Below, in pieces: positions 1 to 28,136 of a DNA stretch of 28,243 nt. Location of the stretch: the IMG/VR virus record IMGVR_UViG_3300028553_000133, positions 1 to 28,243 of that record. One strand, written 5' to 3'. Each line of letters begins with the position of its first letter. Within the stretch, counting starts at the first letter, position 1. The notes beneath the pieces were generated by a model. The model was not told where the DNA came from. It saw nothing but the letters and a program-made list of their open reading frames with translations, and made no database searches. A program made the position numbers and the translations under genes. This stretch comes from a virus.

Positions 1-75
1 TACTGTGCAATCAATAGAGTTATCATCAAGTTGTTTTGCCAACTCAATACAGTCTCCAGTTCTCAGGTCAATCAT
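1..75 (-). CDS. DNA methyltransferase, N-terminal fragment (cut by window edge)
   Basis: Only the first 25 codons are present; the gene continues past position 1. The residues after the start read MIDLRTGDCIELAKQL, then DDNSIDCTV. This is the usual opening of N4-cytosine or N6-adenine DNA methyltransferases, in which a GDC-x-E-L segment is followed by DNSID and then a (D/S)PPY catalytic motif. That motif would lie just outside the window. The ATG at 75 has a GGAG ribosome binding site about 7 nt upstream. It follows the 453-residue ORF by only 31 nt, so the two are probably co-transcribed. The protein would methylate phage DNA, either to evade host restriction or as half of a restriction-modification pair. 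The target base and specificity cannot be read from this fragment. Confidence 0.72.
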   Translation of the reverse strand, partial: MIDLRTGDCIELAKQLDDNSIDCTV

Positions 76-106
76 AGGGTCTCCAGTATTTTACCAGTGT
101 AGCACA

Positions 107-1468
107 TCATTGGATTTTTACAAATGGACCTTCAAGATCATCAGTAGAATATTGAATTTTAGATGCATAATAATATGCTTTTATTAAAAATTCTCCTAAT
201 TTATTTTGTTTGTTAGCATTGATAATTGCTTTCATATATCTCAAACCTCTCAATTTTCCTCTAAAGTTTTGTCTAAATTTAGATTCCTTTTTTATCCCAT
301 AAATTTGTTCAACTTCAGCAGGAGTGTGAGCATCTATCCATGCTAAATCTCTAATGTAATTGTCAGAATCTGTTTTTCTATTTGTGATAGGATTGGTGAT
401 ATAAGTATCTCCAACTTCAACTAAAGAAGATAATTGAACTTGTTTGAGAAATCCACTCCAATATGCAATTTCACTATCACTTAAAGTTTCACTTGCTCCT
501 GTAGGAATATTATGATTAACAGAGTTGCCAGAATATTCTGTTATTAATTTTTCAAACTTTCCAATAGGAATTGATCCAGTTCTAGCACCTGCTTTTTTTA
601 GAGGACTGTTTGGTTTAGGAGAACTAGCAACTAAATCTTTCATTTCAGTTGCGTGAAATCCTGACATAGATGGACTTTTACTTTCCCAAGAATATTTTTT
701 CATACTCCCACCATCCATAGAAACTTGACATTCAAAAGTTAATGAATTACCCCTAAATCCTAATTCTCTTCCATCTTTTTTTACTTCCATCCATTGATGT
801 ACTTTAGTTGTAAATCTGGCATCACCAAATTTTGGAGGTTCAAACTCATCATCTAATTTTGTATTTGTTTCTGTGGCTTTAGGAATATTTGGCCAAGTAG
901 CTTTTTTTAAAGATATTCCAATCAATTCTTTATTTTTATATAAAGTTTTTAAATATTCATTAACTAAAGCAACAAAAACCACTGGTTCCAAATCTTCAGT
1001 TTCTGTTTTTAAATTTTCAATATCTCTTATAATCCTACCTTCATTATTTCCATTATAGATGTAAACATCAGCAGGATTCCAAGTATCCTTTTTAGTCCTA
1101 AATAAACTCCTGTGTTTTTGAGTAAATAATTGCCAAATTTTATCGTAGATATCTGTTCTTTTAGATGGAGGTATTAAATTTCCTAAAGGGGTCATTGATT
1201 TTTCAAATATCCCATATTTGAAATTGGAATAGTTAGTCATTCCAATTGATTTTAAATAGTTTTTTAAAGTTGGTCCTTGATGCTGAAAAGCAAATATTTC
1301 ATCTTTGTCAGATAAATCTGGCCAAACTTTTAAAATATTAGCATCAATTGTTCTAATATCTGTTTTTTTGGTTATAGGATCTTGAATTGGTATTCTATCT
1401 TCTTCCAAAATAGAATAAAAACAATATAGAGAACAAAGTTCTCTAATATCTACATTTGCATCTGCCAT
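107..1468 (-). CDS. Unrecognised 453-residue protein, possible PD-(D/E)XK-like nuclease
   Basis: I do not recognise a named family. The protein is soluble-looking, with no signal peptide or membrane segment. Two stretches resemble restriction-type nuclease cores. The first is WNPADVY (about 130-136) followed some 50 residues later by GISLKK (184-189), a D...SxK arrangement. The second is WESK (261-264), an ExK, after a glycine-rich turn MDGGSMKKY. These are weak motif readings, not proof. The C-terminal third is rich in Lys, Arg and Tyr (about 405-440) and could bind nucleic acid. The start at 1468 (MADANVDIREL) has no Shine-Dalgarno and lies 17 nt after mazG. The gene directly precedes a DNA methyltransferase, which makes a restriction-like role plausible. 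It could equally be an unrelated phage protein. Confidence 0.55.
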   Translation of the reverse strand: MADANVDIRELCSLYCFYSILEEDRIPIQDPITKKTDIRTIDANILKVWPDLSDKDEIFAFQHQGPTLKNYLKSIGMTNYSNFKYGIFEKSMTPLGNLIPPSKRTDIYDKIWQLFTQKHRSLFRTKKDTWNPADVYIYNGNNEGRIIRDIENLKTETEDLEPVVFVALVNEYLKTLYKNKELIGISLKKATWPNIPKATETNTKLDDEFEPPKFGDARFTTKVHQWMEVKKDGRELGFRGNSLTFECQVSMDGGSMKKYSWESKSPSMSGFHATEMKDLVASSPKPNSPLKKAGARTGSIPIGKFEKLITEYSGNSVNHNIPTGASETLSDSEIAYWSGFLKQVQLSSLVEVGDTYITNPITNRKTDSDNYIRDLAWIDAHTPAEVEQIYGIKKESKFRQNFRGKLRGLRYMKAIINANKQNKLGEFLIKAYYYASKIQYSTDDLEGPFVKIQ

Positions 1469-1485
1469 TTAATTTTTGTTTATAA

Positions 1486-1896
1486 TTATCTATCGTCTTC
1501 TGAACGATTTTCTGAATAGAATACATCAAAGTTTCCTCCTGGATAACGTTTCATAAGTTTATCTACATTACCAGAAATCACTTCATCCAATGAAACATCA
1601 AGTGCAATACAAGCCTGTGTAATATACCACATTACATCACCAAGTTCTATTATAAGATGTTCCTTATTATCTTGGTTCCAGGGTTTTCCCTGAAATAGCA
1701 TTTTCTTAATTATTTCAAGAAACTCACCTGCTTCTGCATTCATTCCAACACCAGCAGTTAAAAGCCTTTCAATGTTTGCTCCCTTTTGGTCAAGTTCAAC
1801 CATTCTTTCTGTTAAAGATAGAAAGTCTTTGGATGCATCACTAGTGACTGCATCTACAAATTCTTGATACTTTTTAAAGTCAATTTTTTTAGTCAT
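1486..1896 (-). CDS. mazG: MazG-type nucleoside triphosphate pyrophosphohydrolase
   Basis: The 136-residue protein carries the MazG metal-binding pattern: EAGE (E55, E58), then ELGD (E84, D87), an ExxE-x25-ExxD arrangement on two helices. Family members hydrolyse (d)NTPs to monophosphates and pyrophosphate using Mg2+. Phage MazG was once proposed to lower host (p)ppGpp, and later work on cyanophage enzymes pointed to dNTP hydrolysis; neither can be decided from sequence. The C-terminus continues with MKRYPGGNFD, as in short single-domain phage forms. It sits at the end of the replication cluster after a small ORF and before the 453-residue protein. The ATG at 1896 has no clear Shine-Dalgarno. 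A TATAAT lies about 20 nt upstream, but without a convincing -35 box. Confidence 0.9.
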   Translation of the reverse strand: MTKKIDFKKYQEFVDAVTSDASKDFLSLTERMVELDQKGANIERLLTAGVGMNAEAGEFLEIIKKMLFQGKPWNQDNKEHLIIELGDVMWYITQACIALDVSLDEVISGNVDKLMKRYPGGNFDVFYSENRSEDDR

Positions 1897-1914: not shown

Positions 1915-2142
1915 TTATACAATGAAAGGTTCTAATTCTGATTGGGGTAGGATTTTTTGTTCTGAAAGTTGTAAATCATCTTCTAATTTTACACAAGAGA
2001 CATTTACTGTTTCAGGATTAATATTTTTAATTTGACGATATGTTCTGTTTTCTCCAAGTTCAACTAACATTATAGCATCTTTTATGCTTGCACAGTCAGA
2101 AATCTTTTTACCATTTTTATCAAATACAGAATAATAATTCAA
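1915..2142 (-). CDS. Small hypothetical protein (75 residues) after gp41, TTG start
   Basis: I recognise no family. The reading frame begins with TTG at 2142, which overlaps the gp41 stop as TTGA, and a GAGGG sequence lies about 10 nt upstream. The only in-frame ATG alternative is near residue 24 and would remove a third of the protein. The N-terminus reads YYSVFDKNGKKISDCASIKD, a short beta-hairpin-like opening followed by a helix (AIMLVELGENRTYRQI). The C-terminus is acidic and glutamine-rich. The tight overlap with gp41 and short distance to mazG suggest translational coupling within the replication operon. Function unknown. Confidence 0.6.
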   Translation of the reverse strand: MNYYSVFDKNGKKISDCASIKDAIMLVELGENRTYRQIKNINPETVNVSCVKLEDDLQLSEQKILPQSELEPFIV

Positions 2143-3518
2143 AACTTAAATCCCTCAAATGATTTTTTAGATTTGTGTTCTTCTTTATCATTATACTCTT
2201 CTTCTTTACCAGAGTCAAGAATATCATCCTGTGCTTTTTGCTCACAATCATAAAGTCTCATCTTTGCCCTATCAATACCAACAATGAACCTTTTGTTGAT
2301 AGTGGGATCATTGTATCTATTCTTAAGTTGTTTCACCATAAGTTGTCCCAATTGCTCCAACTCTTCTGTACTAATAAGGGCAAACATAAGATCAGCAGTA
2401 GCAGGGAGACCAAAGGATTCACTAGTATCAGTAAGTTCAACATCAGAGTTGCCATAACCACTACGAGTAGTTTGGGTAGCAGAGACAATGGGAACATTAA
2501 ATTCCACTGCCAATCCTCTAAGTTCCTCTGCAATTGCTTTAACATAAGAATAAGAATTGACAGAAAAGTTTGACTTATACCTTGATGACCCACAAATATT
2601 AAGGTAATCAATAAAAATAATATCAGGTCTAAATGACTTCTTAAGAGATAATTCATTTAACAAAGACTTGAAGTGTCCTACATGTGCAGAAGCAGTTGGA
2701 TACTCTTTAATGATAAAAGTTCCTTGAGTTTTCTTAGCAATATTATTTACCTTAGTATCAAACATTTGCTTAGATAACTCAGTAATATCTTTGATATTTA
2801 CATTCAAGAGGTTCGCATCAATTCTTTCAGCAATCCTGTCCTCAGCCATTTCAAGTGTAATGTAGAGAACATTTTTCCCCTGCAAGAGGATGGAGCTAGC
2901 CATATGGCACATGAATAAACTTTTCCCGACACCTGTGCCAGCAAGAGCGATATTGAGAGTCTTGTTAGGCAGACCACCTTTTGTAATTTTGTTGAAGTAT
3001 TCAAGATCAAATGGGATTTTGTTTTCTTTTTTGTGATAGGATTCATATCTTTGTTCATAGTCATTTAGATAATCATGTCCAATGTGATTGTCAAAACTTA
3101 CTGAAAGTGCACTCTGCAAAATAGAAGGAATAGAATCCCTAGATTTTTTTTCATCTTGACCATCAGCAATCTTAATAGATTCCATAAGAGCAAGATAAAT
3201 TGCACGATCTCTACACCACTTTTCTGTAGTATCAACCATCCAATTCATTTCTACTGGTGAATTATCAAGTTTTGAAATATAATCACAAATTGTACCATAA
3301 GTATCTTCACTAATATCAGTTCTTTTTTCTGTTTCAATTAATAAAACTTCCTTTGTTGCGAGATTATCATAAGCAAGAATAAAATTACAAATTTCCTCAA
3401 AAACTACTTTTTCGTGAAAATTCTCAAAGTATTCATTTTTAAGAAAAGGTAAAACTTTTCTACAATAATCATTATTAAAAAGCAGATTTCTAAGAATTGT
3501 AGTTTCTATTTTTTCCAT
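2139..3518 (-). CDS. gp41: Replicative DNA helicase gp41 (DnaB family)
   Basis: Hexameric 5'-3' helicase that unwinds the phage replication fork and works with the primase. The 459-residue protein has an N-terminal helical domain (about 1-100), a linker, and a RecA-type motor domain. Walker A is GTGVGKS (194-200), preceded by KGGLPNKTLNIALA. TLEM (221-224) follows, then Walker B IIFIDYLN (300-307). SATQTTRSGYG later in the chain matches the conserved Q motif and arginine region of DnaB-type helicases. The ATG at 3518 is chosen because AGGAG lies about 7 nt upstream; an in-frame TTG sits one codon earlier. It follows the oxygenase-like gene by 9 nt. Length matches T4 gp41 (about 475). No intein interrupts the motor domain. 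Confidence 0.95.
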   Translation of the reverse strand: MEKIETTILRNLLFNNDYCRKVLPFLKNEYFENFHEKVVFEEICNFILAYDNLATKEVLLIETEKRTDISEDTYGTICDYISKLDNSPVEMNWMVDTTEKWCRDRAIYLALMESIKIADGQDEKKSRDSIPSILQSALSVSFDNHIGHDYLNDYEQRYESYHKKENKIPFDLEYFNKITKGGLPNKTLNIALAGTGVGKSLFMCHMASSILLQGKNVLYITLEMAEDRIAERIDANLLNVNIKDITELSKQMFDTKVNNIAKKTQGTFIIKEYPTASAHVGHFKSLLNELSLKKSFRPDIIFIDYLNICGSSRYKSNFSVNSYSYVKAIAEELRGLAVEFNVPIVSATQTTRSGYGNSDVELTDTSESFGLPATADLMFALISTEELEQLGQLMVKQLKNRYNDPTINKRFIVGIDRAKMRLYDCEQKAQDDILDSGKEEEYNDKEEHKSKKSFEGFKF

Positions 3519-3527
3519 CAATTACTC

Positions 3528-4073
3528 CTAAGGATTTTTTTTATGTTGAGGAACATCAAACACAAAAGTAATTCTTGAATCATCTCCTATATTCACTGCA
3601 CTATGTGGTTTTTTATTATTAAACCAAAATAGTGTTCCAGGTTCAACTATAACAGATTCATGCTCCACTGTATACTTATACCTCCCCTGAATTGAAAGGT
3701 GATATCTATCTTTACTTAGATAGTAAGTTCCTTCATCTATGTGAAATCCAACTTCTTCTCCTACAGGTAAAGACAAAAAAGCACATCTACGATATTTTTT
3801 AAAATACTTATTTAAGATTTTAAAAATCTCAGTATGATTATCATATGCTGGAGTCTTAATGCACAATTCAGAATTAAATGCCAAATCTCCTGGAGTTTTT
3901 ACTACACCCATTATCAATTGAAGAACATCAACTGTTGTTTTATATTTTGCTGAGTCTACTTGTTCAGTTTTAGATAATGACTTTTGAGAACCCCAATCTT
4001 CAGAATGTTTTTGTAATTGTTCAATGACTTTAGAAACATCAATATGAGTTTGAATAATTCTAATATTATCCAT
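3528..4073 (-). CDS. 2-oxoglutarate/Fe(II) oxygenase-like protein (Asp/Asn beta-hydroxylase type)
   Basis: The C-terminal half has a double-stranded beta-helix signature. H111 and D113 (GFHIDEG) and H157 (KPHSAVN) form an HxD...H iron triad. RYHLSIQG (123-130) and R167 (SRITFVFD) fit the 2-oxoglutarate site of aspartyl/asparaginyl beta-hydroxylase-like enzymes. Such enzymes hydroxylate side chains of proteins or small molecules; the substrate here is unknown. The N-terminal half (about 1-90) matches nothing I know. The frame is open to 4103, but the ATG at 4073, which overlaps the uvsX stop (ATGGATAA), looks more natural; neither start has a good Shine-Dalgarno. Its place between uvsX and gp41 means it is made with the replication proteins. 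I am confident of the fold class, not of the reaction. Confidence 0.75.
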
Positions 4074-5067
4074 AACTGAATTCTTTTTGTGCTGTTTCAT
4101 CAAGTGCCTGCATTACTTCAGCATTAAAATATTTTTCTGGGTCTTTGAGAATTTCTTTGGCATAAAGTTTTTTACCACCAATCTCATAACGCCCTGCTAC
4201 ATTTTTCCAAAGTCCACCAAGTTCACCAAGCTCAAGAAGACCATAGTACTTATCAAGGCCACGCTCATCATAAAATAAACGAATTTCAACATCTTTATTT
4301 TCTTTGCTTAATCTTGATTTATGTGTTTTTGCTTTAATGATATTACCAATAACTTCTGTTCCATCCTTTTCCTTCTTTTTACTAAGATAGATGATAGATG
4401 ATGCAGCATATTTCAGACCACTGCCCCCACCCATATCCTTTGTAGGGACATAAGCACCAATCACATCATATGTGTGATTTGTAACTAACATTGGTATTTT
4501 TGCTTGACCCAACTTAAGAGTCAACATTCTAAAAGCACCCTTGATGAGTTGAGATTTAGTCATATCTCTAACTTCCTTATCATTTAAAGCATCATTAATC
4601 TCCTTACTAGTAGAAAGCATTCCCAAAGAATCTAATACAAATATACAAGGATTCCTTTCTTCTTCCTTTTTCTTCAAGTAGATATCAACTGCCTTGAGTG
4701 TTTTGGTGCGAAATTCTTCTACAGTAACTACATTGATAACCACCAGACGAGTTGTGTCAATTCCCCTGCTTTCCAAAAGGGATTTTGTGATTGCTGCTTC
4801 AGTATCAAAATACAAACAATATCCATCAGGATGACTATCAAGAAAATTCTTAACGACTGCCAAACTGAAGAAAGTTTTTCCTGTGCTGCTTTCACCTGCA
4901 ATTGCAGTAATTTTGTTACCAGAAACCCCACCAAAGATAGAACCAGATACAAGAGCATTAAAAATGTATGAACCCGTATCCACATATGTTTCAGTCTCAT
5001 CAATGTCTGCCGCAATAGAGGCATATTCCCCTCCTACTTCTTTTACAATATCTTTTAAAAAATCCAT
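4066..5067 (-). CDS. uvsX: RecA-like recombinase UvsX
   Basis: Strand-exchange ATPase that forms filaments on single-stranded DNA for recombination-dependent replication and repair. Walker A is GESSTGKT (58-65) and Walker B is CIFVLDS (141-147). [10 protein letters not shown] (195-204) and the loop [13 protein letters not shown] (211-223) fit the L2 DNA-binding loop of UvsX/RecA. At 333 residues it is shorter than T4 UvsX (391), as I recall for cyanophage forms. The C-terminal part carries glycine and lysine motifs ([14 protein letters not shown]). It begins 3 nt after gp43 ends, and no Shine-Dalgarno is visible before the ATG. Partners in this window are UvsY, which loads it, and UvsW. Confidence 0.95.
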
Positions 5068-26969: not shown

Positions 26970-28136
26970 TTACCTATATTCCCACATGTATGATTTGTCC
27001 CCATATTCATCCAAACGCCAAACATCACCATCAGCATCAACTTCACCAATTGGTGCCTCACTTCCATCTACTATAAATCCAAAGGGAGACATGTCTTGTT
27101 CAATTTGATTTTTTTGTTCTTCATATAATCTTTTTCTAACATCTTGTTCCGTTAGTTCTTTAAAATAATCTTGAGAAACCAACCAAGCATAAATGACTAA
27201 GCACATTGCCAAGTCATCATTACAACCATCTTCTGCTTCAAATGAATTGTGTTTTTGAATAAAAGTAGTTAATTCACTAATAATTTCATAATCACTAAAA
27301 ATAAGCTTATCTTCTTCTATCATGGTTTTGAGATTTAAACATCCAATTTTTTTAACTGTCTTGGACATTTTCAATCCTAATTGAGTTTTCTTTCCTGAAA
27401 ATCCTTGACCAACTACTTGACCTGCTCTTCCTCTCATGGAACACATAAGGAGATTCTGATATTCAAGATCATATTGAAGTATAGATGCAACTTGATCGCC
27501 CACATCATTAACCTCACATAGAATAAATGCTTCATTATATGCTTTAGCTATATCATAAATGACATTTGGAAAAAGCATTGGTTTAATTTCATTATTTCTA
27601 TATTTTCCTACTATTTTGTGTGGAAAGGATGTAATGTCATATACAACAAATGCAGAATAATCACTACCAACTCCCCTAGCAACATCAACAGTAATTAAAT
27701 AATCTTTATCTGATTTGGGATCTTCATAAATATCCAAACCTTTACTTCTTTTTATTGGGTCATCAAATACTAATGATTTTAATTTACTTGGATGGATGAG
27801 AGTATCTACTGATCCTAAAAATTCACAGTTGTGTGATATTATATTATTTGAATAATATAAATTATCTTCTCCAACATCCAATAAATCATAAAGATATATT
27901 CCCTCCTCCACTATTTCATTATATACAACCCTCCTCCCTTGCAAAAAGTCATCTACTTTAATATTAGATGCTTTTATTTTTTCACTACCAAATGAATGAT
28001 TTTCTGAGCATTTTATTTCTGTTTCATCATCAAAAATTATCCAATGATAAAAAGGCTTATATACTTTTTGAATTCCAGAAAAAGTTTTAAATCCAGTAGG
28101 AGTTTTTATTAATGTGTTTTTATTGAGTTTAAACAT
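26970..28136 (-). CDS. gp17: Large terminase gp17, C-terminal piece fused to the C-half of a split intein
   Basis: Residues 1-103 are an intein C-part and 104-388 are the terminase nuclease domain. Intein marks: KTPTGFKTFSGIQKV (remaining block A region), SENH (44-47, block B), YLYDLLDV (block F) and SHN before C104 (block G and +1 Cys). The first Cys-containing 25 or so residues are missing, as in the atypically split AceL-TerL intein. The extein starts CEFLGSVDTLI and has the nuclease carboxylates D151 (VDVARG), E208 (CEVND) and D307/D308 (NDDLA); the D-to-E spacing of 57 equals that of T4 gp17. The ATPase half must be encoded upstream, beyond the window. Protein trans-splicing would rebuild gp17. 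The ATG has GGAG about 10 nt upstream. Confidence 0.93.
   Translation of the reverse strand: MFKLNKNTLIKTPTGFKTFSGIQKVYKPFYHWIIFDDETEIKCSENHSFGSEKIKASNIKVDDFLQGRRVVYNEIVEEGIYLYDLLDVGEDNLYYSNNIISHNCEFLGSVDTLIHPSKLKSLVFDDPIKRSKGLDIYEDPKSDKDYLITVDVARGVGSDYSAFVVYDITSFPHKIVGKYRNNEIKPMLFPNVIYDIAKAYNEAFILCEVNDVGDQVASILQYDLEYQNLLMCSMRGRAGQVVGQGFSGKKTQLGLKMSKTVKKIGCLNLKTMIEEDKLIFSDYEIISELTTFIQKHNSFEAEDGCNDDLAMCLVIYAWLVSQDYFKELTEQDVRKRLYEEQKNQIEQDMSPFGFIVDGSEAPIGEVDADGDVWRLDEYGDKSYMWEYR
27828..28136 (-). other. Split intein C-part (TerL intein, AceL-TerL type)
   Basis: This segment encodes the 103 intein residues, ending in His102-Asn103 before Cys104 of the extein. Asn103 would cyclise and His102 assist, as in other inteins. 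The opening MFKLNKN and phrases FSGIQKV, HWIIFDDETEIK, VYNEIVEEGI and NNIISHN closely follow the AceL-TerL C-part as I remember it. No homing endonuclease domain is inserted; the space between blocks B and F is only about 30 residues. Confidence 0.9.

What the first reader, a model, noticed from the sequence alone, without database searches (positions are those of the whole stretch)
1..1468. Possible phage nuclease and DNA methyltransferase pair
A 453-residue protein of unknown family with WNPADVY...GISLKK and WESK motifs is followed after 31 nt by a gene with the typical GDC-x-E-L...DNSID start of a DNA methyltransferase. The order and spacing look like a restriction-modification pair inside the replication operon. 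Such a pair could exclude rival phages or mark the phage's own DNA. The nuclease reading is weak and the methyltransferase is cut by the window edge.
Basis: partly seen in the sequence, partly recalled or inferred. Interest (0 to 1): 0.7.

Follow-up and report, generated by a model that had tools for sequence, protein, structure and literature searches.

The report
Swappable nuclease-like gene beside constant methyltransferase
In T4-like viruses of marine cyanobacteria, one gene slot in the DNA-replication cluster is repeatedly exchanged between otherwise almost identical viruses, and it holds different families of probable DNA-cutting enzymes; in this virus's group the slot sits next to a DNA methyltransferase that hardly changes, which suggests an interchangeable weapon rather than a fixed restriction-modification pair.

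Summary
In detail: a 453-aa ORF (107-1468, minus strand) ends 31 nt before the start of a DNA methyltransferase (MTase) cut by the contig edge. A 99.96%-identical contig (L002) completes the MTase: 256 aa, PF01555, motif TSPPY, nearest solved relatives are cytosine-N4 MTases. The 453-aa protein is phrog_1462, unknown function, in a conserved slot after mazG in T4-like cyanophages. Invariant E10, D134, S186-L187-K188 and N202 resemble a PD-(D/E)XK site with S-x-K. The confident AlphaFold model matches only its own family, so 'nuclease' is probable, not shown. The simple restriction-modification reading fails in part: about 100 phage records carry homologues, nearly all without this MTase beside them, and the gene is replaced alone. 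Contigs L002 and L022 are about 99% identical on both sides with 100% identical MTases, yet the gene between differs (33-37% identity); L176 has an unrelated 335-aa family there. Cultured S-RIM2, S-RIM12 and S-MbCM6 isolates show the same precise exchange among unrelated families, all with a D...[ST]xK motif. Best reading: an allele-exchange locus of nuclease-like genes used in phage-phage or phage-satellite conflict, with a clade-specific protective MTase.

The parts
107..1468 (-). Slot gene: 453-aa phrog_1462 (cyanophage clusters T4-GC 419/533) putative PD-(D/E)XK-like nuclease, window allele
   Evidence: exchanged in near-identical phages
1439..1441 (-). codon of invariant Glu10 in the N-terminal helix (44 of 44 sequences)
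1067..1069 (-). codon of invariant Asp134 (KDxWNxxD), at the start of strand 135-139
905..913 (-). codons of invariant Ser186-Leu187-Lys188 (GISLK), at the end of strand 182-187
863..865 (-). codon of invariant Asn202
1..75 (-). First 25 codons of the beta-class (N4_N6) DNA methyltransferase; full 256-aa gene is L002:7394-8164
1464..1478 (.). Upstream exchange boundary: identity to L022 stops at window 1464, to L176 at 1478
77..280 (.). Downstream exchange boundary: identity to L022 resumes at window 130 (strict) to 280 (relaxed), to L176 at 77
1486..1896 (-). mazG-like pyrophosphatase, conserved upstream neighbour of the slot
2139..3521 (-). gp41 DNA primase-helicase, conserved flank
4066..5067 (-). 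uvsX recombinase, the phage's own strand-exchange protein

Best explanation
SHOWN: the 453-aa gene is one allele at a single-gene exchange slot between mazG and the next gene of the replication cluster of T4-like cyanophages. Near-identical phages carry different alleles, including unrelated families, with breakpoints at the gene's edges. In the window's clade the next gene is a conserved beta-class, probably cytosine-N4, DNA MTase. INFERRED: the slot proteins are DNA endonucleases (PD-(D/E)XK-like with S/T-x-K). During co-infection, or against a satellite, the resident nuclease cuts DNA that lacks its own allele or the methyl mark. The cut genome is destroyed or repaired by phage recombination from the cutter's genome, which copies the slot with short flanks into the competitor. 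The MTase, where present, shields the phage's own genome; phages without it must rely on absent target sites or another protection.
For: Exact exchange in three cultured species groups and in contigs. SNPs are densest within 100-250 nt of the junctions, as left by recombination tracts or co-conversion. Invariant E10, D134, SLK188, N202. Three alternative slot families keep a D...[ST]xK motif: phrog_3060 SDIIVKF..GLSLKK..PTLLN, invariant in 8; phrog_2496 GDIFIKY..GVSLKA; the 335-aa family GYDF..[ST]xK, D133 and K144 invariant in 13. That 335-aa family's model has R.HhaI as its best, weak, solved match (Z 2.9, rmsd 6.5, 149 aligned). The MTase is always beside a slot gene where this is visible. 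In the L002/L176 pair the MTase is about 8% divergent at DNA level while sequence further out is 0.6-1.1%, so it seems to have moved with its nuclease.
Against: No solved-structure match for the window protein; no Pfam, NCBIfam or PADLOC nuclease match. Profile comparison does not link phrog_1462 with the other slot families. The acidic residue of (D/E)xK is Ser. Exchange alone does not prove nuclease-driven transfer: any gene under strong diversifying selection could be swapped by ordinary homologous recombination. No target site is known.
Confidence: 0.45

Rival explanations
1. A classical type II restriction-modification pair: the nuclease and MTase share one recognition sequence and travel together; the phage uses them against unmodified DNA.
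For: Adjacent in every MTase locus with room to see it; the 335-aa alternative family was found only with the MTase (12 with MTase, 0 with DUF6267); apparent co-transfer of MTase and nuclease in L002/L176.
Against: L002 and L022 have identical MTases but nucleases of 33-37% identity; an unrelated nuclease-like family sits beside an MTase 96% identical to the window's; most phage homologues lack the MTase at this place.
Confidence: 0.2
2. Not a nuclease: a fast-evolving host-takeover or anti-defence protein whose alleles are exchanged under arms-race selection.
For: No solved nuclease fold matches; extreme divergence relative to MTase and MazG (median pair identity 48, 80 and 59%).
Against: The invariant residues include E, D, S-x-K and N in an order that suits a metal-dependent nuclease, and all four slot families keep a D...[ST]xK stretch.
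Confidence: 0.22
3. Host-genome degradation nuclease, with the MTase protecting phage DNA, as described for some chlorella viruses (recalled, not tested).
For: Placement in the replication and nucleotide-metabolism cluster.
Against: Does not predict precise swapping among near-identical phages; most carriers lack the MTase.
Confidence: 0.08
4. Neutral hot spot: ordinary recombination between conserved flanks swaps whatever lies between; no conflict function.
For: Cyanophages recombine often relative to mutation (Kupczok and Dagan, PMC6722890); S-RIM2 shows other variable places nearby.
Against: In the L002/L022, L002/L176 and L033/L040 pairs the slot is the only drop within the 8-11 kb of shared sequence, and incoming alleles recur from the same few D...[ST]xK families.
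Confidence: 0.05

Closest known systems
Intronless and free-standing homing endonucleases of T4 and cyanophages (SegF, SegG; cited in PMC3037559, PMC10448857)
   Same: Nuclease-like gene between essential replication genes, precise replacement with short co-converted flanks
   Different: No Pfam match to any homing endonuclease family; the slot was not seen empty in the loci examined; alleles replace alleles
Odn and CRISPR alternatives of vibriophage ICP1 (PMC8263062, PMC10448857)
   Same: Phages of one lineage carry alternative nucleases, aimed at satellites
   Different: Different nuclease type; no satellite target known here
Type II restriction-modification systems
   Same: Adjacent PF01555 MTase and a putative PD-(D/E)XK-like protein
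   Different: Nuclease exchanged without its MTase; many homologues without it
phrog_1462 / T4-GC 419 and 533, cyanophage hypothetical proteins (P-TIM68, P-SSM4, Syn1)
   Same: The window protein is a member
   Different: Only P-TIM68 among the isolates examined has the adjacent MTase; most others have DUF6267 there
Cytosine-N4 MTases of PDB 8s9m, 8s9n (bdelloid rotifer N4CMT, as I recall)
   Same: Best solved sequence match of the MTase, E=1.8e-45
   Different: Phage enzyme; target base and site not tested

Membership tests
PD-(D/E)XK nuclease superfamily | Conserved Asp and Lys (plus helix Glu) of the active site | tested here: met
   E10, D134, K188 invariant in 44 sequences
PD-(D/E)XK nuclease superfamily | Acidic residue in the (D/E)xK position | tested here: not met
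   Ser186 in all 44; S-x-K variants are recalled for some restriction enzymes, not tested
PD-(D/E)XK nuclease superfamily | Core fold | tested here: inconclusive
   Model pLDDT 92.9, pTM 0.89, no solved match; alternative family: R.HhaI Z 2.9 only
Type II restriction-modification system | MTase gene adjacent | tested here: met
Type II restriction-modification system | Nuclease and MTase inherited as a cognate pair | tested here: not met
   L002/L022: MTase 100%, nuclease 33-37% identical
Type II restriction-modification system | Same recognition sequence | not testable with these tools
   needs cleavage and methylome data
Homing endonuclease gene | Precise acquisition with flanking co-conversion | tested here: met
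   also explained by ordinary recombination
Homing endonuclease gene | Known homing endonuclease domain | tested here: not met
   no such Pfam match in 44 members
Homing endonuclease gene | Empty recipient site exists | tested here: inconclusive
   no empty slot among MTase-led loci with room; not surveyed further
N6_N4 beta-class DNA MTase | TSPPY motif IV followed by DPYSGSGTTG motif I | tested here: met
N6_N4 beta-class DNA MTase | Methylates cytosine N4 | not testable with these tools
   closest solved relatives are cytosine-N4 enzymes

The most novel reading that the evidence does not exclude
A plug-in restriction weapon: one broad or constant DNA MTase protects the phage while nucleases of unrelated families are swapped in and out of the neighbouring slot by self-promoted recombination, an allele-replacing gene drive between co-infecting ocean viruses.
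Probability: 0.25. Interest if true: 0.82.

Novelty: new variant of a known kind. Interest (0 to 1): 0.6.

Why it matters
The slot is found widely in the sampled T4-like cyanophages, and cultured isolates of one species group (S-RIM2, S-RIM12, S-MbCM6) already carry different alleles in nearly identical backgrounds. That is a ready-made experiment on whether phage-encoded nucleases decide which genome wins in mixed infections, and it gives a testable function to T4-GC 419/533, phrog_3060 and phrog_2496.

Tried and rejected
Pfam, NCBIfam, PADLOC and PDB sequence searches of the 453-aa protein and its relatives: nothing credible. Foldseek and VIA-align of the window model against the PDB: no match above noise; Foldseek against BFVD found only cyanophage relatives. 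A Foldseek search with the 335-aa alternative allele gave nothing at E<=0.001; its VIA-align second look listed R.HhaI first at Z 2.9, too weak to rely on. hhalign between slot families: no similarity. Bacterial homologues of the slot protein: none; bacterial MTase relatives were only 27-36% identical and were not used. A Cfr10I-like permuted site using E200 was considered and dropped because E200 is not conserved (21 of 44). Assembly chimerism was considered and rejected: the exchange recurs in separate contigs and in isolate genomes. My first context tally counted some contigs twice; one search replaces it, and its 'other' class is a mix of unrecognised neighbours, not counted as evidence.

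Full report
OBSERVATION. The window is a 28.2-kb viral contig of a T4-like marine myovirus: the minus strand carries gp43, uvsX, gp41, mazG and then the 453-aa ORF. The ORF spans 107-1468; after 31 nt the first 25 codons of an MTase run off the edge. A second contig, L002, overlaps the window at 99.96% over 7468 nt and completes the MTase: 256 aa, PF01555 E=1.6e-31, TSPPY then DPYSGSGTTG, nearest solved sequences the cytosine-N4 MTases 8s9m/8s9n.

THE FAMILY. The 453-aa protein is phrog_1462, unknown function. Relatives occupy the same place after mazG in many T4-like cyanophages, where annotators call them hypothetical proteins, T4-GC 419 or 533. P-TIM68 has the same neighbour MTase; the others examined have DUF6267 (T4-GC 71) or a different gene before the cytidylyltransferase. 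tblastn with the S-MbCM6 homologue found 101 phage records; the MTase search at E<=1e-20 found a close relative of the MTase only in P-TIM68, and the more distant cyanophage hits lie elsewhere in their genomes. So the gene is common without the MTase.

IS IT A NUCLEASE? In 44 diverse sequences E10, W130, N131, D134, N170, S186-L187-K188 and N202 never change. In the model (pLDDT 92.9, pTM 0.89) E10 lies in the first helix, D134 precedes strand 135-139 and K188 follows strand 182-187. This order suits a PD-(D/E)XK site with S-x-K. But no solved structure matches, two helices lie between the two strands, and I had no coordinates to measure distances. I put the nuclease reading at about 0.65, by inference.

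THE EXCHANGE. The unexpected result is how the gene is inherited. L002 and L022 are 99.6% identical over 6 kb upstream and about 99.5% over 4.3 kb downstream, with 100% identical MTases, yet the slot gene shows 33-37% protein identity and no DNA similarity over most of its length; the break is 4 nt into the gene and about 23 nt before its end under strict alignment. L176 is 99.3% and 97.7% identical to L002 on the two sides but carries an unrelated 335-aa protein plus an extra ORF; the breaks are about 10 nt before the start codon and 2 nt before the MTase. L033/L040 is another case. In cultured isolates S-RIM2 KX349273 and KX349281 (phrog_1462 against phrog_2496), S-MbCM6 KJ019064 and NC_019444 (phrog_1462 against phrog_3060) and three S-RIM12 isolates show the same thing. 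Assembly artefact is therefore unlikely. SNPs tend to be concentrated within 100-250 nt of the junctions, most clearly in L002/L022, S-RIM2 and S-MbCM6, the mark of recombination tracts.

WHAT THE MTASE TELLS. Over 1035 locus pairs (not independent: many loci are close relatives) median identity is 48% for the slot protein, 80% for the MTase and 59% for MazG; among 21 pairs with MTases at least 99% identical, 5 have slot proteins under 45%. Counted by distinct alleles, phrog_1462 sits before the MTase in 66 and before DUF6267 in 37; the 335-aa family sits before the MTase in 12 and never before DUF6267; phrog_3060 sits before DUF6267 in 12. These numbers reflect how loci were fetched and are not frequencies in nature. 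In L002/L176 the MTase itself is about 8% divergent at DNA level, so there it seems to have travelled with its nuclease. The MTase is thus loosely, not strictly, coupled to the slot gene.

OTHER SLOT FAMILIES. phrog_3060 keeps NSSDIIVKF...WGLSLKK...EPTLLNKP, phrog_2496 has HPGDIFIKY...GVSLKA, and the 335-aa family keeps D133, K144 and helix glutamates E89 and E96. They are not linked to phrog_1462 by profile comparison where tested. The model of the 335-aa protein (pLDDT 87.4) has R.HhaI as its top VIA-align row, Z 2.9, which is suggestive only. The shared motif is short and was picked out by eye, so it is a lead rather than a test.

MECHANISM. I favour a nuclease used in competition between co-infecting phages or against satellites, with exchange driven or at least favoured by cutting and recombinational repair (UvsX is encoded close by), and an MTase that protects self where present. 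Known parallels are T4-type homing endonucleases and ICP1 Odn (PMC10448857, PMC8263062, PMC3037559). The exchange is shown; cutting, target and protection are inferred. I did not find this locus described in the papers I could search, but the Marston and Martiny ecotype paper was not read and may list these genes as variable.

Noticed in passing
window 27828-28136 (minus), start of ORF 26970-28136: Intein-like N-terminal segment ending LYDLLDVGEDNLYYSNNIISHN|CEFLGS before a terminase C-terminal domain (PF17289); the frame upstream has stops, so gp17 may be a fractured gene with a split intein, or the contig end is frameshifted.
   Followed up: partly
window 3528-4103 (minus); L002 about 3390-3945: A second apparently variable place between uvsX and gp41: an Asp/Asn-hydroxylase-like gene (PF05118) that drops out of alignment with L025, L037 and L055 and is a different 2OG-Fe(II) oxygenase-like gene in L202 and L208.
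   Followed up: no
L004:8982-9908, L005:8979-9893: DUF6267, which takes the MTase's position in most cyanophages, has KWDG...EGYVI...KIVDR, reminiscent of ligase-type nucleotidyltransferases; no PDB sequence match.
   Followed up: partly
L100, L101, L119, L121: Two phrog_1462 members side by side in one phage.
   Followed up: no
L167 (S-SKS1): The slot gene is split over reading frames, an apparent decayed copy.
   Followed up: no
L176:3217-3903, L188:3238-3915: Loci with the 335-aa allele can carry an extra ORF of about 228 aa between mazG and the slot gene.
   Followed up: no
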